A stretch of DNA of 23,783 bases from an uncultured Trueperaceae bacterium (GTDB lineage: Bacteria; Deinococcota; Deinococci; Deinococcales; Trueperaceae): NCBI GenBank assembly GCA_937907415.1, contig CALCHY010000118.1:1-23783 (forward strand), read 5' to 3'. The notes under the pieces were generated by a model, which did not search any database, had not been told where the DNA came from, and saw nothing but the letters and a program-made list of their open reading frames with translations. Shown here piece after piece: positions 160 to 23,695 of this stretch. Position numbers and translations under genes: made by a program. Within the stretch, counting starts at the first letter, position 1. Each line of letters begins with the position of its first letter.

Positions 160-1083
160 TCACCCCGCCCCTACGCCAACGAGCGGGTCACCCGCGTTGA
201 TAGCCATGCTGCTGACCGAGAAGAGAACCGTCCCAGCGACCGGGCTAGCGGGAGCCTGAACCTGTACCCCCAACAAGTCGGTGATCACCCCGATCTGCTG
301 CCCTTCGGTCACCTTGTCGCCCGCACGCACGGCCGGGTACCAGCACCCTGTTGCGTCTGCGCGAGACCAGGCCAACTGCCGAACTACCGTCGAGGGGACA
401 CTCGTTTCTGGAGCGCTTTCGATCATTCCGAGGTGGCGCATGCCTCGTAGCGTCGAATCTACGAGCTTGGCGACTACCTCTTCTGGCCATAGGCCCTGAC
501 CGCCCGCCTCGGCTAGAACAGCCGTTACGCCGCGGCCGTGAGCTGCCGCCGTCGTGGTGCCAACTCCGGCGGTCGCAATTGTGAAGTCGAGGCCGAACGC
601 CTGAGCTAACGCACTCGCCTTCTCATCGCCCTCCTGGTGCACTATGAACGGCACGAGGGCCTCAACCAAGTCGCCGCCGTGTAAGTCGACATACGCATCG
701 GCCGCAGAGAACAACTGGGTCACTACCCAATGCGCCAATCGTTCGCTGGCGCTGCCTGCAACATTGCCTGGGAACACGCGGTTGAGGTTCTTGCCGTCGA
801 GCGGGTTGATGTAGATGCTGCGTGCGTAATAGGCCGCCGTGTTCACAATCGGCACTACGACCAGCGTGCCGCTCAGGCCGTCGGTTGGTGTTCGGCTCAA
901 GCGCTGGGCGGCCGCAATCGAAGCGTATTCGGCGCCGTGAATGCCGGCCGTAACAACGAGAGTCGGCCCAGGGAGGGCCCCGCGAACGATGGTGCAAGGC
1001 ACCGCCGGCGCCTCACCCGGGAGAACGTCAAGGGGGCCACTCCACCTCTCGTTCGGCCCAACATCCGGAAGCGAGGCCCTCAC
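160..1083 (-). CDS. AstE/aspartoacylase-family zinc deacylase
   Basis: This 307-residue protein resembles the succinylglutamate desuccinylase/aspartoacylase family. These cytoplasmic zinc enzymes hydrolyse N-acyl amino acids or related amides. The zinc site is visible as GIHGAEYAS (H49, E52) and YVDLHGGD (H135). The family's NLNRVFPG substrate loop lies near residues 99-106, and the likely catalytic Glu is E192 in LAEAGG. The C-terminal third looks like the beta-barrel domain of this family. The start is GTG at 1083, two bases after the TGA of the upstream SDR gene, with a modest CAGGG ribosome-binding site. It is the last gene of the long operon, consistent with hydrolysing an acyl-amide product. 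The acyl donor cannot be read from sequence. Confidence 0.85.
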   Translation of the reverse strand: MRASLPDVGPNERWSGPLDVLPGEAPAVPCTIVRGALPGPTLVVTAGIHGAEYASIAAAQRLSRTPTDGLSGTLVVVPIVNTAAYYARSIYINPLDGKNLNRVFPGNVAGSASERLAHWVVTQLFSAADAYVDLHGGDLVEALVPFIVHQEGDEKASALAQAFGLDFTIATAGVGTTTAAAHGRGVTAVLAEAGGQGLWPEEVVAKLVDSTLRGMRHLGMIESAPETSVPSTVVRQLAWSRADATGCWYPAVRAGDKVTEGQQIGVITDLLGVQVQAPASPVAGTVLFSVSSMAINAGDPLVGVGAG

Positions 1084-1085
1084 GG

Positions 1086-1829
1086 TCAGCCCTGGTCCAG
1101 GGGACGGATGAGAACCTCATTTATGCTCACTCGGCGCGGCTGAGTGACCACGAAACGAATGGCGTTCGCGATGTCCTCGCTTTCGAGAGCTTCCATCTTG
1201 GCGATGTTGCCTTCGTAGAGTGTGCGGGTTGGCTCATGCGGGATGTGCTCAGTGAGTTCGGTCCTTACGACGCCCGGCTCGATGAGGGTGACCTTGATTC
1301 CATCAGTGTTGACCTCTCGACGAAGCGCCTCACTGAAGCCGTTAAGGCCCCACTTAGTGGCGTTGTACCCACCCTGGTTCGGTCCCGCGAAGCGTCCGGA
1401 TACGCTTGAGACGTTCACTATGTGCCCGCTCTTCTGTGCGCGCATCGGGGTGAGTGCAGCACGGCTCGTTATCATGGCGCCTAACAGGTTCACGCGGATC
1501 ATGGCGTCCCAGTCGTCCGGATCGGACTTGTCGATCGGCGACAAGTACATCACGCCAGCGTTGTTTATCAAGATGTCGAGGCGGCCTTGCTCACGCACTG
1601 CGTCGTCGATGCACTGCTGCGCACCCTCCTTGGTGGCAAGGTCGGCGACGACCACCTGCACTTTGGTGCCAAGCGCAGTCAGCTCGGCAGCGAGACTCTC
1701 GAGGCGCTCACGGCGGCGGGCGACCAACACGATAGTTGCCCCCTCCTGGGCGAGTGCGCGTGCTGTTGCCTCGCCAATCCCACTCGATGCCCCCGTTACT
1801 ATTGCCACTTGACCCGTCAATGCTGGCAC
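1086..1829 (-). CDS. SDR-family NAD(P)-dependent oxidoreductase
   Basis: This is a 247-residue classical short-chain dehydrogenase/reductase. It has the cofactor motif TGASSGIG (12-19), NNAG (89-92), catalytic Ser near 141-142 and YNATK (Y155, K159). An arginine-rich stretch after the second strand (ARRRER, 37-42) suggests NADP(H). I chose the GTG at 1829 because GAGGAG sits 7 bases upstream. A longer open frame to 1934 only overlaps the RraA-like gene and would add 35 residues that are not SDR-like. The ribosome-binding site lies inside the last codons of the upstream gene, so translation is probably coupled. It probably oxidises or reduces a hydroxyl group of a pathway intermediate. Confidence 0.88.
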   Translation of the reverse strand: MPALTGQVAIVTGASSGIGEATARALAQEGATIVLVARRRERLESLAAELTALGTKVQVVVADLATKEGAQQCIDDAVREQGRLDILINNAGVMYLSPIDKSDPDDWDAMIRVNLLGAMITSRAALTPMRAQKSGHIVNVSSVSGRFAGPNQGGYNATKWGLNGFSEALRREVNTDGIKVTLIEPGVVRTELTEHIPHEPTRTLYEGNIAKMEALESEDIANAIRFVVTQPRRVSINEVLIRPLDQG

Positions 1830-1833
1830 GTCG

Positions 1834-2403
1834 TTACTCCTCACTGCGGCTCGGTGAGCGAGCCTGCACGATGAACTGCTCAAGTTCAGACTTGTAAGTC
1901 GCCGGAATGACCACGATTCCGCTGCCGTCTGCAACCACGATGTCGCCGGAGACGACGGCTACGCCGTCGATGTGCACTTGCGCGCCAACTACTCCGCTAC
2001 CATCTGCCACGCTTCTGTTCGGAACGGCGCCTCGCGCGCGCACCGTCAGGCCAAGCTGACGGATCTGCGGCACGTCTCGCACGAGGCCGTCCACGACCAC
2101 GCCCGCGGCGCCGCGTTCGGTTGCGATGTTCGCGAGGTTGCCGCCAAAGACAGCGCCGGGAGCGGAGGTGGCGTTGACGATGAGCACCTCGCCCTTCGCG
2201 AGTTGGCTGGCAGTTGCCTTAACGCTGGGAACGTCACCCTGGCCCGCATCGACCGTGCGCGCGACACCCACGAAGGCCTCGGTACCGAGTTGGATTGGCC
2301 ACTGTGAAACGAGTGCCTTGCCAACTCCGTGATCGCTTAGCTCGCAGGTCAGGTCGCCTGTGCCGAGGAGCAGGTTAAGTTCGTGCAGCGCCTGGCGGCT
2401 CAT
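1834..2403 (-). CDS. RraA-like / HMG-aldolase-family protein
   Basis: This 189-residue protein is of the RraA/dimethylmenaquinone-methyltransferase-like fold, which includes HMG/CHA aldolases and oxaloacetate decarboxylases that cleave pyruvate from 4-hydroxy-4-methyl-2-oxo acids. The hallmark pattern G-x20-R-D-x2-(E/D) is present as G88, R109, D110, but the last position is Q113 instead of Glu or Asp. The size and the VFGGN loop fit the family. The ATG at 2403 overlaps the stop of the M32 gene in an ATGA, indicating translational coupling. In this catabolic setting an aldolase or decarboxylase role is more likely than RNase E inhibition, but the missing acidic residue makes the activity uncertain. 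Confidence 0.85.
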   Translation of the reverse strand: MSRQALHELNLLLGTGDLTCELSDHGVGKALVSQWPIQLGTEAFVGVARTVDAGQGDVPSVKATASQLAKGEVLIVNATSAPGAVFGGNLANIATERGAAGVVVDGLVRDVPQIRQLGLTVRARGAVPNRSVADGSGVVGAQVHIDGVAVVSGDIVVADGSGIVVIPATYKSELEQFIVQARSPSRSEE

Positions 2404-3929
2404 ATGGCGTATAGCTCCCGGTACTTGCGGGCGAGGTAATCAAGGTACGGCGCCGCGGTGAGGGACTGACCCGTTGCCCGGACCAGCAACTCGTCCGGGC
2501 TATAGCGCCGGCCGTGCTGGTAGACGTTCTCCTGCAGCCACGTGCGCAGCGGTGCAACGTCGCCCCTTTCCAGCGCTGGAGCCACGTTGGGGTCCTGGCG
2601 CTTAGCGGCTTCCAGCCACTGCACGCTCATTACATTGCCGATGGTGTAAGTACTGAACGCACCGATGAGCCCGGTCGACCAGTGGATATCCTGCAAGCAA
2701 CCGTCCGCGTTACTCGGGACTTCCAACCCCAAGTACTCACGCGTCTTCTCGTTCCACGCCTCTGGGATGTCTGTAACAGCCAAAGAGCCATCCATTAGTG
2801 CCATCTCGAGCTCGACACGCAGCATGATGTGAAGGTTGTAGGTCAGCTCGTCAGCCTCTACGCGTATGAATCCGGGGCGCACAGCATTAACGGCCCGCAC
2901 GAACTTATCGACGCCAATACCTTCCAACTGGGCCGGATAGATCGCCTGGAGCGCCGAGTAGTGGGCGCGCCAGAAGCTGGCGTCACGGCCAACCAGGTTC
3001 TCCCACAAACGTGATTGGCTCTCGTGCGTTCCGTAACTCGTTCCAGCCACCGCGTACAGTCCAACTAGATCAGTGGTGAAGACGGTACGCGCGTAATCGG
3101 GCTTCACACCTTGCTCGTAGAGCGCGTGGCCCGCCTCGTGCAGCGCCCCAAAGAGGCTCATGGGCATCCAGTTTGGGTTGAAGCGCGTCGTGATCCTTAC
3201 GTCATCGCGGGTGAAGGAGATCTCGAAGGGGTGAACCGAACGATCGATTCTGCCACGTTCCAAGTCGTACCCCACCAACGAGGCGAACTGCTCCGCAGCC
3301 TTCAACTGCGACGTAATAGGGTAGTCGCGTTGACTGAGGAAGCTAGTGTCTGGCTCAGCGCCGCGCTCTTTCACTGCGGCAAGCAGCGGCAAGATACCGC
3401 CGCGCAACTCCTCGAACAGTGTTGCTAGCCGCGCCGAAGTCATTCCAGGTTCGTAGGATCCAACGAGTGCATCGTACGGGTGCTCATCAAAGCCGATGGC
3501 CGCTGCAAGCTCGCGGTTCAGGCCCACCATTCGCTCTAGATCCGGTGCGAACGAACCGAAATCGTTGTTCCGCCGGGCAGCTTGCCAAGTCTCGCCGGCC
3601 CGGGCCTTCAGTTCGGCGATGTCGCTAAGCAAGCGCGCCGGGATGCGCCTGAGTACGTCCGTGCCCTCGCGAATCTGGGCCAACTCCGCAGCGACTTCCC
3701 CCACTGCTCCCTCCTCTGCCCTCGCCAGACGCTCCGCGAACTCATCCGAGGTCAGCTGGTGACGCACGATCCGAGTAAGCGTGGCGAGCATCTTGCCCCG
3801 CGCCTCCGCGCCCGCCTTGGGCATTTGCGTGCGCGCGTCCCAAGTGAGGAGGTTGACGGAGCAGAGCAGGTCGTTCGCTTCGGCGATCGTTGACCGTACG
3901 AGGGCAAGCGGCGAATTGGCGTTAGTCAT
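2400..3929 (-). CDS. M32-family metallocarboxypeptidase
   Basis: This 509-residue protein matches the length and motifs of the thermostable carboxypeptidase 1 (Taq carboxypeptidase) family M32, which removes C-terminal residues from peptides using a metal ion in the cytoplasm. HEAGH is at 264-268, and HESQSRLWEN (about 302-311) supplies the third ligand E303. The family's ADE-x-TY-x-LHI-type segment follows further on. The start is the ATG at 3929: it makes an ATGA overlap with the M20 gene and has GGAGG five bases upstream. An earlier in-frame ATG at 3956 would overlap the M20 gene by 31 bases. Together with the importer and the M20 dipeptidase it suggests breakdown of imported peptide-like compounds. 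Confidence 0.92.
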   Translation of the reverse strand: MTNANSPLALVRSTIAEANDLLCSVNLLTWDARTQMPKAGAEARGKMLATLTRIVRHQLTSDEFAERLARAEEGAVGEVAAELAQIREGTDVLRRIPARLLSDIAELKARAGETWQAARRNNDFGSFAPDLERMVGLNRELAAAIGFDEHPYDALVGSYEPGMTSARLATLFEELRGGILPLLAAVKERGAEPDTSFLSQRDYPITSQLKAAEQFASLVGYDLERGRIDRSVHPFEISFTRDDVRITTRFNPNWMPMSLFGALHEAGHALYEQGVKPDYARTVFTTDLVGLYAVAGTSYGTHESQSRLWENLVGRDASFWRAHYSALQAIYPAQLEGIGVDKFVRAVNAVRPGFIRVEADELTYNLHIMLRVELEMALMDGSLAVTDIPEAWNEKTREYLGLEVPSNADGCLQDIHWSTGLIGAFSTYTIGNVMSVQWLEAAKRQDPNVAPALERGDVAPLRTWLQENVYQHGRRYSPDELLVRATGQSLTAAPYLDYLARKYRELYAI

Positions 3930-5314
3930 CGTGCCTCCAGGCTGCCGAGCCGCCACCAGAGACGGGCCCAGGCTTCGAGCCCCGCGCGGAAGCGCTCGGG
4001 GCGGTAGAACTCGTTGGGAGCGTGGATGTCTTCATCGGCCGTGCTGAACGAGAAGAAGATGGTATCGGCGCCAAGCTCCTCAAGAAACGTCGAGCAGATC
4101 GGGATGCTGCCGCCCATGCCGACGACATCGACGGAGGTCTTGAAGATCTCCTGCAGGACCTCGGCGGCGGCAGTCAAGGCCGGGTGGTCAGGGGCAACGC
4201 CGTACGCCTCCGCAGAGTGATCGCCATGGCGAACCTCAAGCGACGCTTGCGGGGGGAGGTTCCGCTCGAGGTGAGCAATGACCTTCGCGGCAACGGTGGC
4301 AGGATCCTGGCCGGGCACGAGTCGGCACGTGATCTTCGCGTGGGCCTCGCTTGGGATGACCGTCTTGCTGCCGGGCCCCTGATAGCCGCCCCAAAGGCCG
4401 TTCACTTCTAGAGTGGGCCGGTACCATTGGCGGGCCAGAGTTCCGAAACCGGGCTCGCCAAAGGTAACGGCACCGACCGCTGCTTCGTAGGCGGCATCAT
4501 CGAATCCGAGGGCCTCAGTTGCCTCCAGTAATTCCTGGCTCGGCCCCACAATGCCTTCATAGAAGCCTGCAACGGCCACTCTGCCTTCGTCGTGCAGGCT
4601 CGCGATAAGCTCGGCCATCACGTGCAGCGGGTTGACCACGCCGCCGCCATGGCGCCCGGAGTGCAAGTCCTTCTTCGCGCCCCGGACCGTGATCTCGAGC
4701 CCGGCCAAACCTCGCGCGCTGATCGTCAGGCATGGGCGTTCAGCACGCCACATTCCACCATCGGCCGAAAGTACGACGTCGCAAGCCAACGCCGCGCGTC
4801 GCTGCGCCACCAACGTCGACAAGTTCGGACTCCCGACCTCCTCCTCGGCCTCGAACAAGAAGCGCAAGTTCAGGGGCGGCTCTTCGCCCGCCTCCGCGTA
4901 AGCCTGGGCGACCAAGATCGGAATGAGCATCGAAGCCTTGTCGTCGGAGATTCCCCGCGCGTACCAGCGGCCATTCCGCTCCGTCAGTTCGAAAGGCGGT
5001 GTGCTCCAAGCCTCTAGGGGATCGGCCGGTTGAACGTCGGCATGGCCGTAAATGAGCACCGTCGGACGGTTCGGGTTGTTTCCCCAAGCACCGACGACTG
5101 CGGGGTGCCCGCCGGTCTCCTCGACCGAGACCTCGATGGACGGCACCGTACGCAGTTGGTCAGCCACCCAGTTCACGGCACGCCTGACATCTGAGGAATG
5201 TTCGGGGTCGGTGCTTACGGACGGGATGGCAACGAACGCCTTGAGCGCTTCAAGGTGCTTGGCGCCGTTCGCCTCTAGGCGCGTTAGCACCGTCTCGAGT
5301 CTCGCGTCGGCCAT
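3926..5314 (-). CDS. M20-family dipeptidase (ArgE/DapE/CPG2-like)
   Basis: This 462-residue dinuclear metallopeptidase has HADVQP (H91, D93), the bridging aspartate region GISDDKA (D124), the acidic EEE cluster (157-159) before VGS, and a dimerisation-domain stretch with DLHSGRHGG. A late His lies in the ADEDIHAPNE segment near the C-terminus. The pattern is that of cytosolic non-specific dipeptidases and carboxypeptidases of M20. The start is the ATG at 5314. Upstream in the same frame the open frame continues to 5485, but that part is arginine-rich and antiparallel to the SDR gene product, so it is not credible. A GGGAG lies 12 bases upstream, somewhat far. The gene begins 8 bases after the SDR stop. 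Confidence 0.9.
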   Translation of the reverse strand: MADARLETVLTRLEANGAKHLEALKAFVAIPSVSTDPEHSSDVRRAVNWVADQLRTVPSIEVSVEETGGHPAVVGAWGNNPNRPTVLIYGHADVQPADPLEAWSTPPFELTERNGRWYARGISDDKASMLIPILVAQAYAEAGEEPPLNLRFLFEAEEEVGSPNLSTLVAQRRAALACDVVLSADGGMWRAERPCLTISARGLAGLEITVRGAKKDLHSGRHGGGVVNPLHVMAELIASLHDEGRVAVAGFYEGIVGPSQELLEATEALGFDDAAYEAAVGAVTFGEPGFGTLARQWYRPTLEVNGLWGGYQGPGSKTVIPSEAHAKITCRLVPGQDPATVAAKVIAHLERNLPPQASLEVRHGDHSAEAYGVAPDHPALTAAAEVLQEIFKTSVDVVGMGGSIPICSTFLEELGADTIFFSFSTADEDIHAPNEFYRPERFRAGLEAWARLWWRLGSLEAR

Positions 5315-5322
5315 GGGAGCGG

Positions 5323-6120
5323 TTATCTCCCGCCGTCGACGGACAGTGTCTGGCCAGTTACCCAGCCAGCGGCGTCGCTTGCGAAGAACATGACGCCGTT
5401 TGCTATGTCGTCGACTGACCCAAGGCGGCGGAGCGCGATGCCTTCGATGAGTTTTCGCTGGCCATCTGGTCCGTAGGACTGCCATTGGCGCTCGGTGGTC
5501 GGGTTCGACCTAACGAACCCTGGAGCAATGCAATTGACCGTGATGTTGGCAGGCCCCAACTCGTGCGCGAGTTGGCGGGTTAGGCCTATGAGCCCGGCCT
5601 TCGCCGAAGCGTACGCCTGGATGCCAGTGAGGCTAACGCCAAGACCAGCGCCGCTTGAGATGTTGACGATGCGCCCGCCGCCTGCTGCCTTGAAGTGGGG
5701 AGCTGCGGCTTGGCTCGTGAAGAAGGCGCCGTCTAGGTTCGCGCCGAAGATCGCGTGCCAATCGTCTTCTGGAACGTCTTCAATGGGTCGACCGACCTGG
5801 CCTAGCACCCCGCCAGCGTTGTTTACGATCACATCCAGCCGGCCGAAACGTGCTGCGGCTCCCTCTACGTACTCTCGAACTGCCAAGCGGTCGCTGACAT
5901 CGACGACCTCGGTTTGAAGCGTTCCGGAAACGTCGCCAACCAACCCTCGCGTCTCAACTAGGCCGGCCTCGCGAACGTCGGAGGCTACGACGTTCGCGCC
6001 GCGGGCGGCGAACGCGAGCGCGATGGCGCGTCCGAAGCCGTGGCCGGCACCCGTAACCAACACGGTGCGGCCGGGGAACGCATCTGCGAACGGTGTGCTG
6101 CTGTCAGCGGCTAGTGGCAT
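5323..6120 (-). CDS. SDR-family oxidoreductase
   Basis: This is a 265-residue classical SDR with TGAGHGFG (23-30), NNAGG (100-104), Ser near 155-156 and Y170-x3-K174. It ends with the usual TGQTLSVDGG segment. An Asp at the end of the second strand (ASD, D48) suggests NAD(H) preference, in contrast to the other SDR in the operon. The start is the ATG at 6120, preceded by AAGGAGG with a short 3-base spacer and overlapping the upstream gene by 17 bases. The closest functional classes are glucose/ribitol-type and 3-oxoacyl-reductase-like dehydrogenases. The substrate is not predictable beyond a secondary alcohol or ketone. Confidence 0.87.
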   Translation of the reverse strand: MPLAADSSTPFADAFPGRTVLVTGAGHGFGRAIALAFAARGANVVASDVREAGLVETRGLVGDVSGTLQTEVVDVSDRLAVREYVEGAAARFGRLDVIVNNAGGVLGQVGRPIEDVPEDDWHAIFGANLDGAFFTSQAAAPHFKAAGGGRIVNISSGAGLGVSLTGIQAYASAKAGLIGLTRQLAHELGPANITVNCIAPGFVRSNPTTERQWQSYGPDGQRKLIEGIALRRLGSVDDIANGVMFFASDAAGWVTGQTLSVDGGR

Positions 6121-7228
6121 CTTCCTCCTTGGACTTGGCTTCTGAGAAGACTTGCCCCCGTCGGACGTCCGCACCTTGCTCGGTTGAACCCGTTTCGGAG
6201 ATCGCTTGGAGCGCCGTCATGTCGCGCGGCCTTAGTCCGTCCTCTACCTCATGGATGAGGTCAACTAGCTTTATGAGGTGTGGAACGGCGATGCCGTGCT
6301 GAACAGCCATTTCTAGGATAGGTAGGAACTGACCGTCCACTTCGGTCTTACGGTGACGAACGGCTAGGTCGCGCCAGACACCGCTACGCGCCTTTGCCGA
6401 CCTGCGGTTAAAGGCCTCCATTGCGTCGAACGAAGCCGATTGCGCAGTGCGGTCTTGACCGTCGGGGGCGAACGCGGCGGGGTCATAGCCGTTGAACCCC
6501 CTGGGCGTCACCCCCTCTGCTGCGGTTACCGTCGAGACCTCGAGCGCTAAGGCGGTGAGGGTGTCCCGTGCGTCTGGGTTCGCCAACACGTCGGCGATGC
6601 TGTCGTCTGTCAGGGCAGTGGCGAAGAGCATTGCGCCGTACGCCATCTTTCCCCAGAGGTAACCCCAGATGTTGTCGGTAGCTATGGCATCCGGTTCCGC
6701 GCAACGCAGAATCGACAGAACGTCGGCCACGCGTTCCGACGTGCGCCCGTCGAGTTCACCCACCACCACGGCGCCGCGCCCCGAGAAGTGAACGACTCCA
6801 GGCTCGAGCACGTCGGCACCGAAGTTCACGAAGGCGCCAACGGTGCGGTCACTGCCGATCTGCCTGCTGATGGTGTGTTCGTTGAGGCCGTTTTGCAACG
6901 ACACTACGTAACCGCCTGGCGCAAGCCTGGGCACTAGCTCGGCCGTCGCAGGGCCGGTGTGGTGCGCCTTCACGCACAGGAGGACCATATCCCAGGTGCC
7001 AGTCACGTCCTGAGGCAGGTAGGCCGGTGCGCTTACGGCGAATTCGGAGATCGGCCCGATGATGCGCAGGCCGTGCTCTCGTATGGCGGCAACGTGGGCG
7101 GCGTCATTGTCAACGAAAGTCACTTCATGCCCCTCGCGCGCCGCGTGCGCGCCGATGGTGCCGCCGATGGCCCCTGCGCCCCACACGAGTACACGCTTAG
7201 GTTGAGGTGCGGCGGGTGCTCCGCTCAC
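6104..7228 (-). CDS. Ketopantoate-reductase-like (ApbA/PanE fold) dehydrogenase
   Basis: This 374-residue protein has the N-terminal Rossmann motif GAGAIGG (17-23), the CVKAHHT and LQNG segments, and the helical ApbA C-terminal domain. True ketopantoate reductases carry Lys-x3-Asn-x3-Asn at the start of the C-terminal domain. Here the Lys is kept (WGKMAYG) but both Asn positions are Gly and Phe. At 374 residues it is also longer than PanE (about 300). I therefore infer a dehydrogenase for a different 2-oxo/2-hydroxy acid, not pantothenate synthesis. The start is GTG at 7228, forming a GTGA overlap with the creatininase stop. The ribosome-binding site is weak, so coupling probably drives translation. 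Confidence 0.82.
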   Translation of the reverse strand: MSGAPAAPQPKRVLVWGAGAIGGTIGAHAAREGHEVTFVDNDAAHVAAIREHGLRIIGPISEFAVSAPAYLPQDVTGTWDMVLLCVKAHHTGPATAELVPRLAPGGYVVSLQNGLNEHTISRQIGSDRTVGAFVNFGADVLEPGVVHFSGRGAVVVGELDGRTSERVADVLSILRCAEPDAIATDNIWGYLWGKMAYGAMLFATALTDDSIADVLANPDARDTLTALALEVSTVTAAEGVTPRGFNGYDPAAFAPDGQDRTAQSASFDAMEAFNRRSAKARSGVWRDLAVRHRKTEVDGQFLPILEMAVQHGIAVPHLIKLVDLIHEVEDGLRPRDMTALQAISETGSTEQGADVRRGQVFSEAKSKEEDATSR

Positions 7229-7926
7229 AGCCAAGGCCCGTCGATGGCGTCTCGCGTTTCCTCGACACCGGCCTGCCAAATGCGGCTCATGACTTCGTCA
7301 TCCTTGAAGTAGGCGCCACCCAGACTGCCGTCGCCGAGTAGCTCGCGGACGCCCTCAGCAGGAAGCAGACGCATCTTGTGCATGTCAGCTAACGGCTTCG
7401 TCGTGGTGGGCAACGCCACTCCCGCCAACCTCGTCCAGGGGAAGTTTTCCATCCACGAGGCGTGTGAGGCTATCGGATCGGTGGCTTGCACGAGTTCAAA
7501 GGTGCGGGGTGCGTTCCACCAGTTATGCCAGCGCGCTTGCATGCCGGGGTTGCGGTTCATCCACTCTTGAAGCACGCCCTGGCCGCTGGAGTTGCCCCCG
7601 TGGCCGTTCACGAACAACACGCGCTTGAAGCCGGTCTGAGCCAGGCTGTCGAGCACGTCTTGAAGAACCCGCACGTAGGTATCTAGCTTGAGAGAGACCG
7701 TGCCGGGGTAGGCCATGAAATACGGCGTAAGGCCGTAGTTAAGGGTGGGGAAGACGGGAACGCCGAGGGGTTCTGCAGCGTCGGCGCTCACGCGCTCGGC
7801 CAAGATGTTGTCCACCGCTAGGCTGAGGTAGGCGTGTTCCTCAGTGCTGCCCAGCGGCACGACCACTCGGTCGTCGCGCTTCAGATAATCCTCTACCTGC
7901 ATCCAGTTCATTTCACTTACCTTCAT
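7225..7926 (-). CDS. Creatininase-family amidohydrolase
   Basis: This 233-residue protein is of the creatininase family, metal-dependent hydrolases of cyclic or linear amides such as creatinine and formamidopyrimidines. The motifs PLGSTEEH (E30, H31), D39 and NGHGGN (H109) are conserved metal-ligand regions. The later motif, usually HAGExETS, reads HASWMENF (155-162): Trp replaces the first Glu and only E160 remains. The start is the ATG at 7926 with AAGGAG seven bases upstream. It overlaps the GntR gene by 14 bases. An alternative ATG at 7911 has a poorer ribosome-binding site. An amide or lactam hydrolysis step in the operon pathway is the natural inference. Confidence 0.85.
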   Translation of the reverse strand: MKVSEMNWMQVEDYLKRDDRVVVPLGSTEEHAYLSLAVDNILAERVSADAAEPLGVPVFPTLNYGLTPYFMAYPGTVSLKLDTYVRVLQDVLDSLAQTGFKRVLFVNGHGGNSSGQGVLQEWMNRNPGMQARWHNWWNAPRTFELVQATDPIASHASWMENFPWTRLAGVALPTTTKPLADMHKMRLLPAEGVRELLGDGSLGGAYFKDDEVMSRIWQAGVEETRDAIDGPWL

Positions 7927-8938
7927 CGGCGCTCTCCTTGTTGGCGACGGCGTGTCGCAGGGAACTCAATAGTGGGAGGACGAATGCGGTTATGACGCTC
8001 GGTTCGGGCTCGTGACGGAACTCAAACGCCGTTAGTCCCGAGGGGAGGTGCTGCAGAACGACATCGGCGCCGGTGCTGTAAACGAGCGCATTGCACCAGG
8101 TGGCAACATCGCTACTCGCCGGTTGGTCGTATGGCAGGATGCGCCGCTCCCGCACGTGAGGTGCGTAGCGCGCCACGTTCCTGAGCAGCGTAGGCAGAAA
8201 CTCTGGCACCGCTGCCGTGACAGCCAGTCGCGTGTCGGGCGCCAAGGCGGCCAGGCGGGTGCGGGTTGCTGTGGAAGGGATGAGTGGCAGCGCCATGATG
8301 GCGGCGTCTGGACCAACCAACCCGCGCAGTTCCTTCTCGCGGTTAGCCAAAGTTAGGTAGGCGTGGAAGGGCGGGTCGGGCAGGCCTTCGCTCGACAGGC
8401 GCTCGAACGTGGTGGCGCGCAGCGTGTCCGACTTCGGAAGGTGGCGGCGGACGTGGTCCGCGTAGCCTTCGGTGGCTTCCTCGTAGATGCCAACGTAGAG
8501 GAGCCGGAGTCCTCGTCCTGCGGGTGGCATCTGACTGGCTCGCAGCATGGCCGCCTCGGCCGCCGCCAATGGGGTTAGGCCGATGGCCTCTGCCTTTGCG
8601 AACAGGTCCTCGACTGCGCGGTGCAGCGCGCCGAGTACGCCAGCTTCGGGCGTGGGGGGTAGGCGGTCAGGGACGTATGTTCCGCGGCCCTGTTGGCTCG
8701 CCAAGAGGCCAGCTTCCTGAAGCTCCTTGTACACGTGTGACACCGTGACCGGCGCTACCGATAGGTCCCGCGCCAACTGGCGCACGGACGGTAGCTTGGT
8801 ACCCGGAGCTATGTCGCCGGTGGCAATGCCGTATTCAATCTGTCCGCGCAGTTGTGCGTTCACCGAGATCGGCAGACTGCGGTCAAGCATGAAGTGCAGG
8901 CTCGACGAGCCATCTAGCGTCGAAGGTTCGTCGGTCAT
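7913..8938 (-). CDS. GntR-family transcriptional regulator
   Basis: This 341-residue regulator has an N-terminal winged helix typical of GntR (PISVNAQLRGQIEYGIA, then LPSVRQLARDLSV and TVSHVYKELQ, about residues 23-75), ending in the wing QGRGTYV. The roughly 240-residue C-terminal part resembles neither the FadR/FCD nor the UTRA nor the MocR aminotransferase domain that I recognise. It may be a periplasmic-binding-protein-like effector domain. The start is the ATG at 8938 in an ATGA overlap with the ATPase gene. Its place inside the transporter/enzyme operon suggests it controls its own operon in response to the substrate. The inverted repeat at 14482-14513 is a candidate operator. Confidence 0.88.
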   Translation of the reverse strand: MTDEPSTLDGSSSLHFMLDRSLPISVNAQLRGQIEYGIATGDIAPGTKLPSVRQLARDLSVAPVTVSHVYKELQEAGLLASQQGRGTYVPDRLPPTPEAGVLGALHRAVEDLFAKAEAIGLTPLAAAEAAMLRASQMPPAGRGLRLLYVGIYEEATEGYADHVRRHLPKSDTLRATTFERLSSEGLPDPPFHAYLTLANREKELRGLVGPDAAIMALPLIPSTATRTRLAALAPDTRLAVTAAVPEFLPTLLRNVARYAPHVRERRILPYDQPASSDVATWCNALVYSTGADVVLQHLPSGLTAFEFRHEPEPSVITAFVLPLLSSLRHAVANKESADEGK

Positions 8939-9942
8939 GAGACCACCGGCTCCTCCAAATGGCAAGCGTGGAGGCGGCCATCTGCACGCGGCAGAAGTAA
9001 CGGCACGTCGCGGCTGCAGCGCTCAATGGCTACAGGACAACGAGGGTGGAACGGGCAGCCGCTCGGAACGTGCAGGGGGCTGGGTAGCTCGCCCGTGAGC
9101 GCAGTGGTCTCCGTCTTCTGGTCTGGATCGATGGTGGGCGCGGCCGAGAGTAGTGCCTTGGTGTAAGGGTGGCGCGGGTCGCGGAACAGCTCCTCGGTTT
9201 CCGCCACCTCGACCACACTGCCCAAGTACATGACGGCCACGCGGTGCGAGATGTGGCGCACCAGCCGTAGATCATGCGCCACGAAAAGCACGGTGAGGTT
9301 CAACCGCGACTGCAGCTCAAGGAGAAGGTTGATGACCTGTGCTTGCACGCTTACGTCAAGCGCCGAGACGAGCTCGTCGGCCACCAGCGTTTCGGGCTCG
9401 AGAGCTAACGCTCGCGCGATGCCGATCCTTTGCCGCTGCCCGCCCGAGAACTCGTGGGGCATGCGCTCGGCCGCGTCGACTGGCAGGCCGACCAGGTCGA
9501 GCAGTTCCGCCACGCGTTCTGCCACCTTGTCCCTTGGTCGCATGTTGTGCACCAGCAGTGCCTCGCGCAAGACCTGCCCAACACTCATCCTAGGGTTGAG
9601 GCTGGCGTAAGGATCTTGGAACACCATCTGCACCTTGCGGTGATAGGTCCGGAGTCCCTCGCCGCTTAGGTCGAGCACATCGTCGCCCCGGTACCTGATG
9701 TGGCCGGAGTCCGGCTCATGCAGGCGCACCAGGCAGCGCGCCAACGTAGACTTCCCGCAGCCCGATTCACCGACGATGCCGAGCGTCTCGCCCTGGGCGA
9801 CCTGAAGGGACACGCCGTTTAGCGCTTTGACGGCCCGCTTAGGTTCGCGGCGAACGCGTTGGAGCATGGTGATGGCCACCGGGAACGTCTTGACGAGGCC
9901 GTCGATCTCGAAGGCGAGGGGCGGAGTGATTTGGGCGGTCAT
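8935..9942 (-). CDS. Opp/Dpp-type ABC transporter ATP-binding protein (DppF/OppF-like)
   Basis: This 335-residue ATPase energises uptake at the inner face of the membrane. It has Walker A GESGCGKS (58-65), Q-loop VFQDPYASLNP, signature FSGGQRQR (165-172), Walker B LVADE (186-190) and the H-loop VAHD (H223). The usual Pro after Walker B is Leu (ADELVSALD). A C-terminal oligopeptide-transporter extension with clustered Cys (GCPFHPRCP) is present, as in OppF/DppF. The start is the ATG at 9942, in an ATGA overlap with the partner ATPase. It is the second of two ATPases, which most likely act as a heterodimer. Confidence 0.93.
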   Translation of the reverse strand: MTAQITPPLAFEIDGLVKTFPVAITMLQRVRREPKRAVKALNGVSLQVAQGETLGIVGESGCGKSTLARCLVRLHEPDSGHIRYRGDDVLDLSGEGLRTYHRKVQMVFQDPYASLNPRMSVGQVLREALLVHNMRPRDKVAERVAELLDLVGLPVDAAERMPHEFSGGQRQRIGIARALALEPETLVADELVSALDVSVQAQVINLLLELQSRLNLTVLFVAHDLRLVRHISHRVAVMYLGSVVEVAETEELFRDPRHPYTKALLSAAPTIDPDQKTETTALTGELPSPLHVPSGCPFHPRCPVAIERCSRDVPLLLPRADGRLHACHLEEPVVS

Positions 9943-10937
9943 GCTTTTCCGTCCCCGAACACGGGCAGCTTGGCGTGATGGATGCATGCAGTCAAGTGGC
10001 CTTCGCTTGTCTGCACGAGTTCGGGTTCCGCCTCGCGACAGGCGTCGGTAACGTAAGCGCAGCGCGGCGCGAACGCACAGCCGCGTGGCAGGTTGGTCAC
10101 ATCAGGCGGCGATCCAGGGATCGGTTGCAGCGGTTGGCGGCTATCGCCCCCTTCTGGTAGGGAGAGTCGCAGTCCTACCGTGTAGGCATGCTTCGGCTCG
10201 GTGAACAGGTTGCGGACGGGCGCCAACTCTACTAGCTTGCCGGCGTACATCACGGCCACGCGGTCGCAGGTTTGCGCGATGACTCCAAGGTCGTGAGTTA
10301 CGAGGATGACGCTCATATTGAGCTTCTCCCGCAGACTCAAGATGAGCTTGAGGATCTGATCTTGAATGGTTACATCGAGCGCGGTAGTTGGTTCGTCGGC
10401 CAGCAGTAGTTGCGGCGATGAAGCGAGCGCAATCGCGATCATGGCTCGTTGGCGCATGCCGCCGCTGAACTCGTGGGGGTACGCCGCGAGCCGCTCGCGA
10501 GGAGACGGGATGCCAACGAGCTCAAGGAGTTCGGTGGCGCGTGTCACTGCCGCCGCTCCGCGGAGGCCCTCGTGAGCATTGAGGCTCTCGAGAATCTGTG
10601 AGCCTACCGTCAGTACAGGGTTGAGCGCCGTCATCGGCTCTTGGAAGATCATGCTTATCTCGGCCCCAGTGACTTGCAGCATGCGCCGCCGCGAGGCCTT
10701 CAGGACGTCCTCGCCCTTCCAGAAGATCTCGCCTCTAACTTGCGTTGGGGGCTGGAACAGCCGGAGGATGGAGCGCAAGGTGACGCTCTTACCGGAGCCC
10801 GATTCGCCCACGATTCCCAGGACCTCACCAGGTTGTAAGTCAAAGTTGACGTTGCGAACTGCATGTAGCGGGCCGCGGTTGGTGTGGAAGGTGGTGTTGA
10901 GGTTCCTGATGGAGAGTAGCGGTTCGGCACTGGTCAC
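9939..10937 (-). CDS. Opp/Dpp-type ABC transporter ATP-binding protein (DppD/OppD-like)
   Basis: This 332-residue ATPase is the first of the pair. It has Walker A GESGSGKS (44-51), Q-loop IFQEPMTALNP, signature FSGGMRQR, Walker B LLLADEP with D-loop TTALD, and H-loop VTHD. The C-terminal oligopeptide-transporter region has the GCAFAPRC cysteine motif. I chose the GTG at 10937 because it makes a GTGA overlap with the permease stop and has GAGG five bases upstream. The open frame to 11030 merely runs through the permease gene in another frame. The protein assembles with the neighbouring permeases and the second ATPase. Confidence 0.93.
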   Translation of the reverse strand: MTSAEPLLSIRNLNTTFHTNRGPLHAVRNVNFDLQPGEVLGIVGESGSGKSVTLRSILRLFQPPTQVRGEIFWKGEDVLKASRRRMLQVTGAEISMIFQEPMTALNPVLTVGSQILESLNAHEGLRGAAAVTRATELLELVGIPSPRERLAAYPHEFSGGMRQRAMIAIALASSPQLLLADEPTTALDVTIQDQILKLILSLREKLNMSVILVTHDLGVIAQTCDRVAVMYAGKLVELAPVRNLFTEPKHAYTVGLRLSLPEGGDSRQPLQPIPGSPPDVTNLPRGCAFAPRCAYVTDACREAEPELVQTSEGHLTACIHHAKLPVFGDGKA

Positions 10938-11788
10938 TTCGGCCTCAAAATGTCGGCAAGTCCGTCGCCGACGAGACTGAAGCCAACCCCGACAGCCGTG
11001 AGAACAAGGCCAGGGAAGGTCGAGATCCACGGGGCCGTTGTCATGAAGTTCTTACCGTCGGCAACCATGACCCCCCATTCCGCGGTCGGCGGTTGTGCCC
11101 CCAAGCCGAGGTAACCAAGCGAAGCACCGAGAAGAATGCCGAGGCTCATGTCGGTCATCCAGTAGACGACCGCTGGCGTAACGGCGTTGGGGAAGATGTG
11201 CCTGAACACCACGCGGGTCGGCGAGTACCCCATGACCTTGGCCGCGCTTACGTAATCGGAGCGTTTCTGGACGATGGTCTCACCGCGTACTAGGCGGGCG
11301 TAGTACACCCACCCAACGATGCTTACCGCGATGAACATGTTCTTCAGACCGGGTCCGAGCATCGCTACGATGGCGATGACGAGGATGAGGAATGGGAAGA
11401 CCATCACCACGTCGACGATGCGACCGAAGATCGCGTCGAGCCAGCGTCCGAAGTAGCCAGTCAGCGCCCCGATGAGGGTGCCGAAGATGAACGGGAAGAG
11501 CGTGGTGAACAGAGCAATCTGGAGGTCGGTGCGGGCACCGTGCACCACGCGAGAGAACACGTCGCGTCCGAAGTTGTCCGTTCCGAACCAGTGAGCGGCG
11601 CTTGGCGCTTGAAGGATGGCGCCGTAGTCGAACTTGTTGGGGTCGTGCGTGGCGAAAAGTGAAGGGAAGATCGCCATCAGAAGGGCCGTAGCTACGATTC
11701 CGATACCTAGGATCATGGTCGGCTTGACGGTTAGGCGCTTCCGGCGCACGACAGTGGCCGCGCCGACGTTGACGGTGCTCGAGCTCAT
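10934..11788 (-). CDS. ABC transporter permease (DppC/OppC-like)
   Basis: This 284-residue inner-membrane permease has one N-terminal transmembrane segment (about 24-46), the OppC-type HWFGTDNFGRDVFSR motif, then about five more hydrophobic segments. The EAA loop that contacts the ATPases reads YVSAAKVMGYSPTRVVFRHI, and a typical C-terminal segment follows. The ATG start at 11788 has AGGTGG six bases upstream and follows the other permease's stop after one base. Substrate specificity lies mainly with the binding protein, so peptide, nickel or glycoside uptake cannot be separated from this gene alone. Confidence 0.93.
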   Translation of the reverse strand: MSSSTVNVGAATVVRRKRLTVKPTMILGIGIVATALLMAIFPSLFATHDPNKFDYGAILQAPSAAHWFGTDNFGRDVFSRVVHGARTDLQIALFTTLFPFIFGTLIGALTGYFGRWLDAIFGRIVDVVMVFPFLILVIAIVAMLGPGLKNMFIAVSIVGWVYYARLVRGETIVQKRSDYVSAAKVMGYSPTRVVFRHIFPNAVTPAVVYWMTDMSLGILLGASLGYLGLGAQPPTAEWGVMVADGKNFMTTAPWISTFPGLVLTAVGVGFSLVGDGLADILRPK

Positions 11789-11789
11789 C

Positions 11790-12731
11790 TCAGGCCACCT
11801 TCGTCCGAGGGTCGAGCACGGTGTATGCCAGATCGGTGAGTAGGAAGATGACCATGATCACCACTGCGAACGCTAGGGTAAGACCTTGCACTACGGCGTA
11901 ATCGCGCCCGAAGATGGCGTCTACCATCAGCCGACCTACCCCGGGGATGGCGAACACGGTCTCGGTGATCACGGCGCCTCCCATCAGTTGCCCGATCGAC
12001 AGGCCGAAGAGCGTAACGGTGCTGATCATGGCGTTGCGTAGCACGTGCCGCGTAAGCACGAGACGCGGACGGATCCCCTTTGCCCTGGCGAAAGAAACGT
12101 AATCAGACGTGAGCACTTCGAGGATCGACGCCCTGAGGCTGCGCATGAGGATTGCTGCCATGTAGAACCCTAGGGATAACGCTGGCAGGAAGAGGAAATA
12201 GAAGTTCGAGGCGGGCGTTGGCCCGATGCCCCCGACGGGGAACCAACGCAGTTGAGCCCCGAAGACGGTGAGGAGCTGCAGCGATACGTAGAACACGGGT
12301 AGAGATAGTCCGATTTGGAATACCGCGCGTATCAGGTTGTCAATCCAAGTGCCGCGCTTCAGTGCAGATAGCACCGCCATCGGTATGGCCATCACCGCGG
12401 CGAGCAGACCAGCGTAGGCGGTAAGGAACAGGGTGATAGGCAGTCTGTCGCCGATCAGGCGAGTAACGGCCATCTTCAGGTTGATGCTCTCGCCAAGATC
12501 GCCGCGGATGACGCGGTTGAAGAAGATCCAGAACTGCATGGGCAGTGGCTTGTCTAGCCCCAGCTCCTGGTTGACCCTCGCGACGGCCTCGTCCGTAACG
12601 CGGTCGCCAAGTATTGCTACGGCGGGATTGCCAGGGAGCAGGCGAACCAAAGCAAATACCAGGATCATGATCACGACGAGCGTTGGGATCATCTGCAGGA
12701 TTCTCGCGAGCAAGTACGCCCAACGGTTCAA
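11790..12731 (-). CDS. ABC transporter permease (DppB/OppB-like)
   Basis: This 313-residue permease has the classic N-terminus RILQMIPTLVVIMILVFAL, the LPGNPA loop, several further transmembrane helices and the EAA loop segment YVSFARAKGIRPRLVLTRHV. It ends with the family's LDPRTKV. The start codon is TTG at 12731, supported by GGAGG six bases upstream. The next in-frame ATG would remove half of the first transmembrane helix. The gene is separated from the binding-protein gene by about 100 bases that contain a strong hairpin. Confidence 0.92.
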   Translation of the reverse strand: MNRWAYLLARILQMIPTLVVIMILVFALVRLLPGNPAVAILGDRVTDEAVARVNQELGLDKPLPMQFWIFFNRVIRGDLGESINLKMAVTRLIGDRLPITLFLTAYAGLLAAVMAIPMAVLSALKRGTWIDNLIRAVFQIGLSLPVFYVSLQLLTVFGAQLRWFPVGGIGPTPASNFYFLFLPALSLGFYMAAILMRSLRASILEVLTSDYVSFARAKGIRPRLVLTRHVLRNAMISTVTLFGLSIGQLMGGAVITETVFAIPGVGRLMVDAIFGRDYAVVQGLTLAFAVVIMVIFLLTDLAYTVLDPRTKVA

Positions 12732-12778
12732 CTGTGACCTCCGATGTAATGGGCTCGGCGAGTGGTGGCGGTATTGGT

Positions 12779-12815
12779 GGTTCGTGGCCGCACGGCGTGC
12801 GTGCAGCCACGAACC
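12779..12815 (-). promoter_or_regulatory. Intergenic hairpin between binding-protein and permease genes
   Basis: A perfect 10-bp inverted repeat (GGTTCGTGGC at 12779-12788, GCCACGAACC at 12806-12815) encloses an inner 5-bp stem CGCAC-GGC-GTGCG, with a 4-base bulge on one side. No T-run follows on the minus strand, so it is not a standard intrinsic terminator. Such stems between binding-protein and permease genes often protect the upstream mRNA from 3' exonucleases and give more binding protein than membrane subunits. That role here is an inference. Confidence 0.6.
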
Positions 12816-12830
12816 GTCTTGCCTGGCGGC

Positions 12831-14402
12831 TTAGTTGCTCTTGTAGGTGTCCTTGAAGATGTAGACGCCAAGTGGAATCTGAACGAAGTCCTGCACCGAG
12901 TTGCTCATGGCAACGGGGTAAGGGTTCTCGTAGAGGAACACGATCGGCGCGGCAGCCATGTAGATCTCTTGGATGCGCTCGTACTGAGCGGCGCGCACCG
13001 CAGTGTCGAGTTCAGACTGCGAGGCGGCGAACAGTGCGTCTACTTCGTCTGACTGGAAGCCGGTGTGCAGCGACTCAACCGTTGCATACACGGCGAAGTA
13101 GCTGGTGATCTGACTCGGGTCGTTGATGTCGTTCGTCCAGCCGGCGGTGCGCATCTGGAAGTTGTTGGTGCGGTATCGCTCGGTCTTGGTGGCGTTGTCG
13201 AGCTGCTCGATGACGAGCTTGATGCCTGCGTCACCCCACATGCTCTGCAGCGCGGTGAGGAGCGCGAGGTCGTCTTGGCTACCGGCGGTAGACATGGCGG
13301 TGACGGTGAAGCCCCCTGCGAAGCCAGCTTCGGCTAGCAGCGACTTTGCCTTCTCGAGGTCGTAGTCGTAGCCCTCACCTGCGACGTAGTAGGGCGTGGT
13401 GGTGGACATGTAGGAGTGCATGGGCGAGCCGATCCCGAAGCCAACGACCTGGATGAGCGCCTGCTTGTTGGTGGCGTAGTTGATGGCTTGGCGGACGCGG
13501 AGGTCGGACAACGGGTTTGCGGAGCCGTCAGGCAGTTCGGGGCGGTTGTTCATGAGCACGCTGTTGACGCGGGTGGACGGGAACAGCTCTACGTTCAGGC
13601 GGCTGTCATTCCTCAGTTCGCCGATGCGCGCCAGTGGGATGAACTCGGCGACGTCCAACTCGCCAGCTTGAAGCTTGAGGATGCGCGTGGCGTCGTCTGG
13701 GATGATTTCGAAGCTGATGGCGTCTAGGTAAGGCAGCGGCTGGCCGTCGGCGCCAGTGTCCCAGTAGAAGGGGTTGCGCTCGACGACCATGCGCGAACCG
13801 CGCACCCATGACTTGAGCATGAACGCGCCGGAGCCGATGGGCTTTTCCGCGAACGCCTTGGCCTTCTCCTCGTCGGTGGCGCCTGGCATTGCCTCGAAGA
13901 GTTGCTGCGGCATGATGGCTGAGTTGAACATGGCCAGCGCCGCGAGGATGGTGGGGTCTGGGTAGGAGAGGTTGATGGCGACCTGGCCATCGGTGGCGTC
14001 GATGCTGGCTATGGAGGCAAGCGTGAAGCTCCAGATGCCATTATCTGGGTTGCGCGCGCGGTCGAGGGACCACTTCACGTCTTGCGAGGTGATGGCGCTG
14101 CCGTCGGCGAACTTGATGCCATCGCGGAGTGTGAACGTGAGGGTGAGGCCGTCGTCGGAGAACGCCCAATCGGTGGCGAGGCCCGCTTCGACGCCAGTGC
14201 CGTCTGCCGTGGGTTGGAGCAGGGAGTCGTAGAGGCTGCTGAGAACCCAGATGTCTAGGTTCGCGTCGTTTAGAACCGGGTCGAGGAACAGCGAATCGGC
14301 GTAGCGGCCGAACGTCAAAGTTCCGCCGCGCTCCTGCGCTAGGCCGGTGCCCACCAGTAGGGATACTACTAGTGTGATGACGAGTGGAGTGAAGCGCTTC
14401 AT
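12831..14402 (-). CDS. ABC transporter substrate-binding protein (SBP_bac_5, peptide/opine type)
   Basis: This 523-residue extracytoplasmic solute-binding protein is of the DppA/OppA family. The signal peptide is clear: KR, then a hydrophobic core to about residue 20, with likely cleavage after GLA (GLA-QE). No lipobox Cys is present, so it is a periplasmic or secreted form. Family segments include a LDP...ND motif after the mature start, LTFTLRDGIKFADGS, and DLRVRQAINYATNK. The ATG start has GGGAGG five bases upstream. It is the first gene of the importer operon and fixes the specificity of uptake, which I cannot predict. Confidence 0.93.
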   Translation of the reverse strand: MKRFTPLVITLVVSLLVGTGLAQERGGTLTFGRYADSLFLDPVLNDANLDIWVLSSLYDSLLQPTADGTGVEAGLATDWAFSDDGLTLTFTLRDGIKFADGSAITSQDVKWSLDRARNPDNGIWSFTLASIASIDATDGQVAINLSYPDPTILAALAMFNSAIMPQQLFEAMPGATDEEKAKAFAEKPIGSGAFMLKSWVRGSRMVVERNPFYWDTGADGQPLPYLDAISFEIIPDDATRILKLQAGELDVAEFIPLARIGELRNDSRLNVELFPSTRVNSVLMNNRPELPDGSANPLSDLRVRQAINYATNKQALIQVVGFGIGSPMHSYMSTTTPYYVAGEGYDYDLEKAKSLLAEAGFAGGFTVTAMSTAGSQDDLALLTALQSMWGDAGIKLVIEQLDNATKTERYRTNNFQMRTAGWTNDINDPSQITSYFAVYATVESLHTGFQSDEVDALFAASQSELDTAVRAAQYERIQEIYMAAAPIVFLYENPYPVAMSNSVQDFVQIPLGVYIFKDTYKSN

Positions 14403-21193: not shown

Positions 21194-21283
21194 TAGGTGG
21201 CTTTGCGAGATTTGCGTGAGAGTCAGGAGCTATCGCTCCTCCGCATTGGGAAGCGGACTCAATCCCTTGGAACGGAGGGAACG

Positions 21284-22501: not shown

Positions 22502-22535
22502 CGGTGACCGGCTCTGGAGCAACCGTGTCTCGGTG

Positions 22536-23695
<1,160 letters not shown>

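What the first reader, a model, noticed from the sequence alone, without database searches (positions are those of the whole stretch)
160..14402. Fourteen-gene coupled importer-to-aldolase operon: candidate undescribed amide/peptide catabolic pathway
Seen: an Opp/Dpp importer, GntR regulator, creatininase-like hydrolase, ketopantoate-reductase-like dehydrogenase, two SDRs, M20 and M32 peptidases, RraA-like aldolase and AstE-like deacylase, mostly joined by ATGA/GTGA overlaps, with an amidase upstream. Known: these families hydrolyse amides, lactams and peptides, oxidise hydroxy acids, or cleave 4-hydroxy-2-oxo acids. Inferred: the cluster imports an amide-linked compound, opens it with up to five different C-N hydrolases, and degrades the carbon skeleton through oxidation and aldol cleavage. 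I know no characterised pathway with this set.
Basis: partly seen in the sequence, partly recalled or inferred. Interest (0 to 1): 0.75.

Follow-up and report, generated by a model that had tools for sequence, protein, structure and literature searches.

The report
Conserved peptide-scavenging operon, substrate unknown
This bacterial gene cluster pairs a peptide-type importer with a recurring set of amide-cutting and oxidising enzymes; relatives keep that set in very different bacteria, so it probably breaks down an unidentified amide-linked nutrient.

Summary
The operon is real: 14 minus-strand genes (160-14402) in the reported order, with an amidase upstream; six of 13 junctions can be exact 4-base ATGA/GTGA overlaps. 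The constant core is a creatininase-like hydrolase (CREA), a ketopantoate-reductase-like dehydrogenase (KPR) and one SDR, often with an M20 dipeptidase. Anchored on KPR, CREA lies within 10.5 kb in 52 of 56 fetched loci (Deinococcota, Alphaproteobacteria, Gemmatimonadota). Deinococcus deserti plasmid 3 carries all 15 gene families in one run; an unnamed Deinococcota genome has 12 genes collinear with the window. Importer and other hydrolases are exchanged between lineages; in 12 of 19 Gemmatimonadota loci an amino acid permease stands beside the core. A palindromic GntR operator recurs between importer and enzyme genes. KPR lost pantoate-contact positions, CREA is not a true creatininase, and RraA is lineage-specific and lacks an aldolase residue, so 'importer-to-aldolase' is not supported. 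Best reading: uptake and hydrolysis of a small amide/peptide conjugate, then oxidation of its non-amino-acid part. The substrate is unproven; I found no description in the partial paper library searched.

The parts
14565..15980 (-). Amidase (PF01425), upstream accessory; AMID relatives lie near KPR in 6 of 54, 4 of 19 and 1 of 18 loci elsewhere
14482..14513 (.). Palindrome GTCAACTG-N16-CAGTTGAC upstream of SBP; inner 20 bases (14488-14507) fit the GntR operator consensus 9 of 12: candidate operator
   Evidence: the single window site is not significant alone
12831..14402 (-). Family 5 solute-binding protein (SBP); best PDB sequence match AapF 7kz8
11790..12731 (-). ABC permease 1 (DppB/OppB type)
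10934..11788 (-). ABC permease 2 (DppC/OppC type)
9939..11030 (-). ABC ATPase 1; likely start at 10937 (GTGA overlap)
8935..9987 (-). ABC ATPase 2; likely start at 9942 (ATGA overlap)
7913..8965 (-). GntR-type regulator with a roughly 240-residue C-terminal domain without Pfam match; likely start 8938
7225..7926 (-). CREA: creatininase-family hydrolase, signature HNWWNAP...SHASWMENFPWTR
6104..7279 (-). KPR: ketopantoate-reductase-like dehydrogenase; likely start 7228
5323..6174 (-). SDR1: core short-chain dehydrogenase; likely start 6120
3926..5485 (-). M20 dipeptidase (NF006053 over its cut-off); likely start 5314
2400..3956 (-). M32 carboxypeptidase; likely start 3929
1834..2403 (-). RraA-like protein, accessory
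1086..1934 (-). SDR2: accessory short-chain dehydrogenase; likely start 1829
160..1083 (-). AstE/AspA-like zinc carboxypeptidase/deacylase, accessory

Best explanation
It is a member of a widespread, patchily distributed catabolic cluster. A family 5 ABC importer (shown by family) brings in a small peptide-like amide conjugate (inferred). GntR, probably acting at a palindromic operator, keeps importer and enzyme genes off until the ligand or a product appears (operator shown by conservation in relatives, action inferred). Interchangeable C-N hydrolases (here M20, M32, AstE-like and amidase) trim ordinary amino acids, and the creatininase-family hydrolase opens the remaining, probably ring or hindered, amide (inferred). 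The released non-amino-acid part is oxidised by the KPR-like enzyme (most likely a 2-hydroxy acid to 2-oxo acid step) and by SDR1; RraA, where present, decarboxylates or cleaves the product (inferred). The constant CREA-KPR-SDR1 core handles the part common to all substrates; the swapped importers and peptidases handle what it is attached to.
For: Core constancy from two anchors: SDR1 in 54 of 54 CREA-anchored loci that have KPR; CREA beside KPR in 19/19 Deinococcota, 17/18 Alphaproteobacteria and 16/19 Gemmatimonadota loci. Recurrent neighbours are largely C-N hydrolases: isoaspartyl peptidase, S58, proline iminopeptidase, PuuE-like, X-Pro peptidase-like, M20, M32, amidase; at least one of eight hydrolase families besides CREA lies near KPR in 47/54, 18/19 and 15/18 loci. 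Operator motif: 27 hits at 10 of 12 or better in 13 kb of importer/GntR intergenic DNA against 5 in 958 kb elsewhere in the same loci; in 31 regions not used to spot it, 17 hits (14 regions) against 1. Catalytic KPR residues are kept while pocket residues changed uniformly. Importer parts co-vary (SBP-PERM1 r 0.97) but track CREA weakly (r 0.42), as in a swappable module (no species-tree control).
Against: No substrate, product, expression or activity is known. Importer parts are near KPR in only 3 of 19 Gemmatimonadota loci, where an amino acid permease often stands instead (12 of 19), so the substrate may be amino-acid-sized. GntR was seen in only 2 of 18 KPR-anchored Alphaproteobacteria and 0 of 19 Gemmatimonadota loci. 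SDR1 was missing near KPR in 1/19, 5/18 and 3/19 KPR-anchored loci. CREA occurs without KPR in 26 of 80 loci. The direction of the redox steps is assumed. Four hydrolase queries were taken from these same loci, so their counts describe rather than test.
Confidence: 0.5

Rival explanations
1. General oligopeptide nutrition: the importer and peptidases only supply amino acids, and the dehydrogenases and creatininase-like enzyme are passengers.
For: Broad peptidases (M20, M32) and an Opp/Dpp-type importer.
Against: The supposed passengers are the most constant part, while importer and peptidases are replaced; a shared operator sits between them.
Confidence: 0.15
2. Cyclic or proline-containing dipeptides: CREA opens a diketopiperazine-like ring amide, then M20 or proline peptidases split the dipeptide; the dehydrogenases act on modified residues.
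For: Proline iminopeptidase-family gene over its cut-off near the core (L031), Xaa-Pro dipeptidase-like (L040, under its cut-off) and an S15/CocE X-Pro-peptidase-like gene in 10 of 26 loci examined, upstream and divergent in 5, downstream in 5; SBP relatives lie beside M24/aminopeptidase P and proline racemase-family genes.
Against: Does not explain the constant KPR and SDR1; proline iminopeptidase is present in few core loci (3 of 54); the S15/CocE family also holds esterases and acylases (recalled).
Confidence: 0.12
3. Pantothenate or pantetheine breakdown: CREA acts as pantothenase, KPR oxidises pantoate, RraA splits ketopantoate.
For: KPR scores over TIGR00745 (156.5 against 141.35); ketopantoate is a 4-hydroxy-2-oxo acid (recalled chemistry).
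Against: In 99 KPR sequences the E. coli PanE positions N180 and N184 (pantoate contacts, recalled) are G and F in 96 each, and the S244 column is G in 99 (a Ser stands one place earlier, so that column may be misplaced); RraA is absent from most lineages sampled.
Confidence: 0.04
4. A signal-uptake system like AapB-F/PipR, in which the imported compound is a cue and the peptidases quench it.
For: SBP's best PDB match is AapF, 245 bits, solved with the small amide HEHEAA (7KZ9; figure legend in PMC11168924); the AapA-F/PipR transporter and peptidases respond to plant macerate and peptides (PMC4981722, passages).
Against: No LuxR-type regulator among the operon proteins; family 5 binding proteins have many ligands; the enzyme set looks catabolic.
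Confidence: 0.05

Closest known systems
PipR/AapA-F transporter-peptidase system of Pseudomonas sp. GM79
   Same: Related family 5 binding protein, Opp-type importer next to cytoplasmic peptidases
   Different: No LuxR-type PipR; GntR instead; has CREA, KPR and SDR core, which the passages read do not mention
iaaA-gsiABCD (E. coli isoaspartyl peptidase + glutathione importer; recalled)
   Same: Peptide importer next to isoaspartyl peptidase, as in some relatives (L067, L083)
   Different: No CREA/KPR/SDR core (recalled), and the window lacks isoaspartyl peptidase
Creatininase family enzymes (creatininase, MftE, IolN)
   Same: Fold and the E34, H36, D45, H120 metal positions
   Different: Scores far under the cut-offs of all three models; E122 replaced by G; sequence matches end at residue 139 of 233 at most
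Ectoine degradation DoeB (AstE-type deacetylase)
   Same: AstE domain; DoeB structures 6twl and 6twm among the PDB matches of the window's AstE
   Different: 79.5 bits against a cut-off of 402.7; no other ectoine gene recognised in the operon

Membership tests
Creatininase (TIGR04448) | Curated score cut-off 235 | tested here: not met
   74.1 bits
Creatininase (TIGR04448) | Metal positions E34, H36, D45, H120, E122 (roles recalled) | tested here: not met
   First four kept, E122 is G
Creatininase superfamily PF02633 | Pfam gathering score and fold | tested here: met
   138.5 against 31.3; model 91.7 pLDDT, best PDB match 3no4, TM 0.76
MftE / IolN | Equivalog cut-offs 172 and 245 | tested here: not met
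   59.1 and 62.4
Ketopantoate reductase PanE | Subfamily model TIGR00745 | tested here: met
   156.5 against 141.35
Ketopantoate reductase PanE | Catalytic K176, E256 and N98 (roles recalled) | tested here: met
   99/99, 97/99, 98/99
Ketopantoate reductase PanE | Pantoate contacts N180 and N184 (roles recalled) | tested here: not met
   G 96/99 and F 96/99
Ketopantoate reductase PanE | S244 (role recalled) | tested here: inconclusive
   Column is G in 99/99, but in the window and four relatives printed a Thr or Ser stands one place earlier
RraA-type 4-hydroxy-2-oxo acid aldolase | D-X20-R-D motif (recalled) | tested here: not met
   R-D kept, first D aligned to G against 3noj
RraA-type aldolase | NCBIfam aldolase models (TIGR02798 cut-off 304.5; NF006731 cut-off 179) | tested here: not met
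   64.5 and 71.1 bits
M20 dipeptidase NF006053 | Equivalog cut-off 441 | tested here: met
   482.6 bits
Opp/Dpp ABC importer | SBP_bac_5, two BPD permeases, two ABC_tran+oligo_HPY | tested here: met
Opp/Dpp ABC importer | Peptide as ligand | not testable with these tools
   PDB relatives also include nickel, heme and agrocinopine binding proteins
PipR/AapA-F system | LuxR-type PipR adjacent | tested here: not met
   None among the 15 operon and amidase proteins scanned; the ORFs just upstream of the amidase were not scanned
MocR-type GntR regulators | Aminotransferase-like C-terminal domain | tested here: inconclusive
   No Pfam aminotransferase match; partial GabR/PdxR alignments at 10-11 A rmsd
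DoeB N-acetyl-diaminobutanoate deacetylase | Cut-off 402.7 | tested here: not met
   79.5

The most novel reading that the evidence does not exclude
A widespread pathway, found on plasmids in several genera, for glycated or otherwise ring-modified amino acids: imported peptides are trimmed to an arginine-derived hydroimidazolone (whose ring resembles creatinine; recalled chemistry), CREA opens that ring to a carboxyethyl-amino acid, and the KPR-like enzyme, acting like an opine dehydrogenase, oxidises it to free the amino acid and a 2-oxo acid. This would make CREA-KPR-SDR1 a dedicated module for protein-damage products.
Probability: 0.06. Interest if true: 0.85.

Novelty: new variant of a known kind. 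Interest (0 to 1): 0.5.

Why it matters
CREA alone has at least 8000 relatives at E 1e-20 or better (capped search), many of those listed being named creatinine amidohydrolase; for the KPR-linked ones that name, and '2-dehydropantoate 2-reductase' for KPR, are probably misleading. The conserved core, its operator and its accessory hydrolases turn them into one testable pathway hypothesis with concrete strains (Deinococcus, Microvirga, Rhodobacterales). Finding the substrate would reveal a nutrient that no described pathway I could find explains.

Tried and rejected

Led nowhere. Literature: searches returned no paper; one search listed six, none holding 'creatininase family'; one search listed 10 of 20, of which I saw titles and abstract starts and none is about this cluster (PMC4617892 holds 'creatininase' once and was not opened). 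Searches served the AapF/PipR lead only. All 10 paper searches are used, and the library lacks most subscription journals. GntR sensor domain: Foldseek lists PrpR 2pju at rank 48, E 1.6e-3, TM 0.50 by target; the VIA list is filled by DNA-binding domains and does not list it, so this stays open. Wider GntR regulon: with one mismatch allowed, 14 genomes gave seven places; two are the cluster's own operator (L207, L208) and none of the other five stretches of 2.4-3.0 kb matched my queries; the pattern read backwards, as control, gave five places, so the genome-wide signal is at noise. Exact palindromes and a bulk palindrome excess were weak before the motif was written down. AstE and M20 specificities were not resolved.

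Limits of the counts: G004 (same place as L016) was not refetched among Alphaproteobacteria nor G006 (L046) among Gemmatimonadota; L142 is the same place as L009 and is counted in both samples; 10 of 54, 11 of 19 and 6 of 18 loci are under 15 kb, so absences are lower bounds. Congeneric loci are not independent. Named annotated examples came from a plasmid collection, so how often the cluster is plasmid-borne was not measured. (ORF clustering) counted the permease in 13 and the S15-type gene in 11 of 26 loci; (tblastn) gives 15 and 10, which I use.
Full report
OBSERVATION. The 14-gene minus-strand operon is present as described, with the amidase 162 bp upstream. Six of 13 internal junctions can be 4-base overlaps. 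No host genome is held for the window. Its nearest matches for whole gene order are Deinococcota, so it probably comes from that phylum; this is an inference.

CONSERVATION, CREA AS ANCHOR. The creatininase-like protein found 586 relatives in genome contigs, of which 80 loci were kept. With tblastn of the 15 window proteins plus four accessory families and a second RraA, 54 of 80 loci hold KPR at 45% identity or more. In these 54, within 10.5 kb of KPR: SDR1 54, at least one importer part 46 (four or more parts 41), GntR 37, M32 31, M20 23, isoaspartyl peptidase 22, polysaccharide-deacetylase-like 19, S58 6, amidase 6, SDR2 5, AstE 4, proline iminopeptidase 3, RraA 0. The other 26 loci have CREA in other contexts (SDR1 in 6, importer parts in few).

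CONSERVATION, KPR AS ANCHOR. Fetched loci: 19, 18 and 19. CREA lies within 10.5 kb in 19, 17 and 16; SDR1 in 18, 13 and 16; M20 in 16, 5 and 13; importer parts in 14, 17 and 3; GntR in 15, 2 and 0; RraA in 11, 0 and 0; M32 in 5, 1 and 0. So CREA-KPR-SDR1 is the core, M20 a frequent partner, and the rest is exchanged.

COLLINEAR RELATIVES. L152 (unnamed Deinococcota) carries PERM1-PERM2-ATP1-ATP2-GntR-CREA-KPR-SDR1-M20-M32-RraA-SDR2 in the window's order; its contig starts near PERM1, and no AstE was found in the 16.8 kb fetched of 24.7 kb. Deinococcus deserti plasmid 3 carries all 15 families, amidase and AstE included, in one direction within about 16 kb, in a different internal order. D. actinosclerus, D. 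peraridilitoris, D. psychrotolerans and Deinococcus sp. KNUC1210 plasmids are similar. Sulfitobacter, Octadecabacter, Microvirga and Klebsiella plasmids hold variants; the Klebsiella one showed no KPR or SDR1 in the 24.7 kb read.

MODULES. In 42 loci SBP and GntR are adjacent and divergent, so importer (often with M32) and GntR-CREA-KPR-SDR1 form two transcription units. One group has an SBP about 53-66% identical to the window's and usually M20; another has an SBP of about 25-30%, many with polysaccharide-deacetylase-like and isoaspartyl peptidase genes. An amino acid permease follows M20 in 15 of 26 loci examined (12 of 19 KPR-anchored Gemmatimonadota loci, L046 and two Acidobacteriota), and an S15/CocE X-Pro-peptidase-like gene, probably exported, lies nearby in 10 of 26, upstream and divergent in five (domain identity checked on one or two representatives). 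Pairwise distances: SBP-PERM1 r 0.97, GntR-CREA 0.80, KPR-M32 0.85, KPR-M20 0.76, KPR-SDR1 only 0.50, SBP-KPR 0.66, SBP-CREA 0.42 (no species-tree control, descriptive only; the SBP-KPR value is not lower than KPR-SDR1, so this test alone does not prove modularity).

REGULATION. A 20-base palindrome TGTTmTA-N6-TAkAACA emerged from importer/GntR intergenic DNA. At 10 of 12 matches it occurs in 24 of 48 regions, 27 hits in 13,069 bp against 5 in 957,636 bp elsewhere in the same loci; in the 31 regions not used to spot it (nor close congeners) 14 have it, 17 hits against 1. The window's own site scores 9 of 12 within a perfect 8-base-arm palindrome at 14482-14513; taken alone it is not significant, since three window matches were found with 1.27 expected, and two collinear Deinococcus plasmids (L082, L085) score only 6 of 12 in the 180 bp searched. 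The GntR model is good (pLDDT 89.8) but its sensor domain has no firm fold match.

ENZYMES. KPR: catalytic K176, E256 and N98 kept, pantoate contacts N180 and N184 lost in a uniform way; the S244 column is uncertain (E. coli panE; residue roles recalled). CREA: four of five metal positions kept, E122 to G, a distinct C-terminal signature, creatininase fold. RraA: R-D kept, first D lost. M20: over the cut-off of dipeptidase NF006053 and closest in the PDB to cytosolic non-specific dipeptidase. The SBP's best PDB match is AapF, from the transporter-peptidase system of Pseudomonas GM79 that responds to plant macerate and peptides (PMC4981722, passages only); AapF was solved with HEHEAA (7KZ9, one figure legend of PMC11168924), which is an ethanolamine-derived amide (recalled).

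INTERPRETATION. The constant redox-plus-hydrolase core with exchangeable importers and peptidases fits a pathway for one recurrent non-amino-acid or modified moiety delivered in different amide conjugates. A 2-hydroxy acid (or N-carboxyalkyl) moiety is the simplest fit to KPR. The substrate, the direction of the redox steps, and the order of reactions are inferred.

NOVELTY. Gene families and the importer-regulator-enzyme layout are known; the combination and its core were not described in the papers I could search. Hence: new variant of a known kind.

Noticed in passing
window 16874-18477 (+): AAA_12 helicase C-terminal part followed by an overlapping REase_MTES_1575 nuclease domain in another frame; no N-terminal helicase part was recognised in the ORFs scanned: looks like a broken helicase-nuclease gene.
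   Followed up: partly
window 18675-20239 (+): Dual-specificity-type phosphatase (PTP-SAK/DSPc) overlapping by 4 bases an ADP-ribosylglycohydrolase (PF03747): a possible ADP-ribose processing pair.
   Followed up: no
window 21197-23585: Transposase remains: Mutator-family pieces in separate ORFs (21197-21613, 21770-22174) and an IS110-type transposase (22536-23585); an insertion-rich flank.
   Followed up: partly
L083 4366-19983 (Klebsiella variicola plasmid): The GntR-CREA-importer version lacks KPR and SDR1 in the stretch read and lies near SIS-domain, PfkB kinase and amino acid ABC transporter genes resembling Amadori-product catabolism (resemblance recalled).
   Followed up: no
L088, L089 (Phaeobacter and Aminobacter plasmids): SBP relatives at 49-51% identity sit beside M24/aminopeptidase P and proline racemase-family genes, hinting at proline-type ligands for this SBP group.
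   Followed up: no
L194 5823-7262 and relatives: In 12 of 19 Gemmatimonadota loci and in L046, L052 and L058 an APC-type amino acid permease follows M20.
   Followed up: yes
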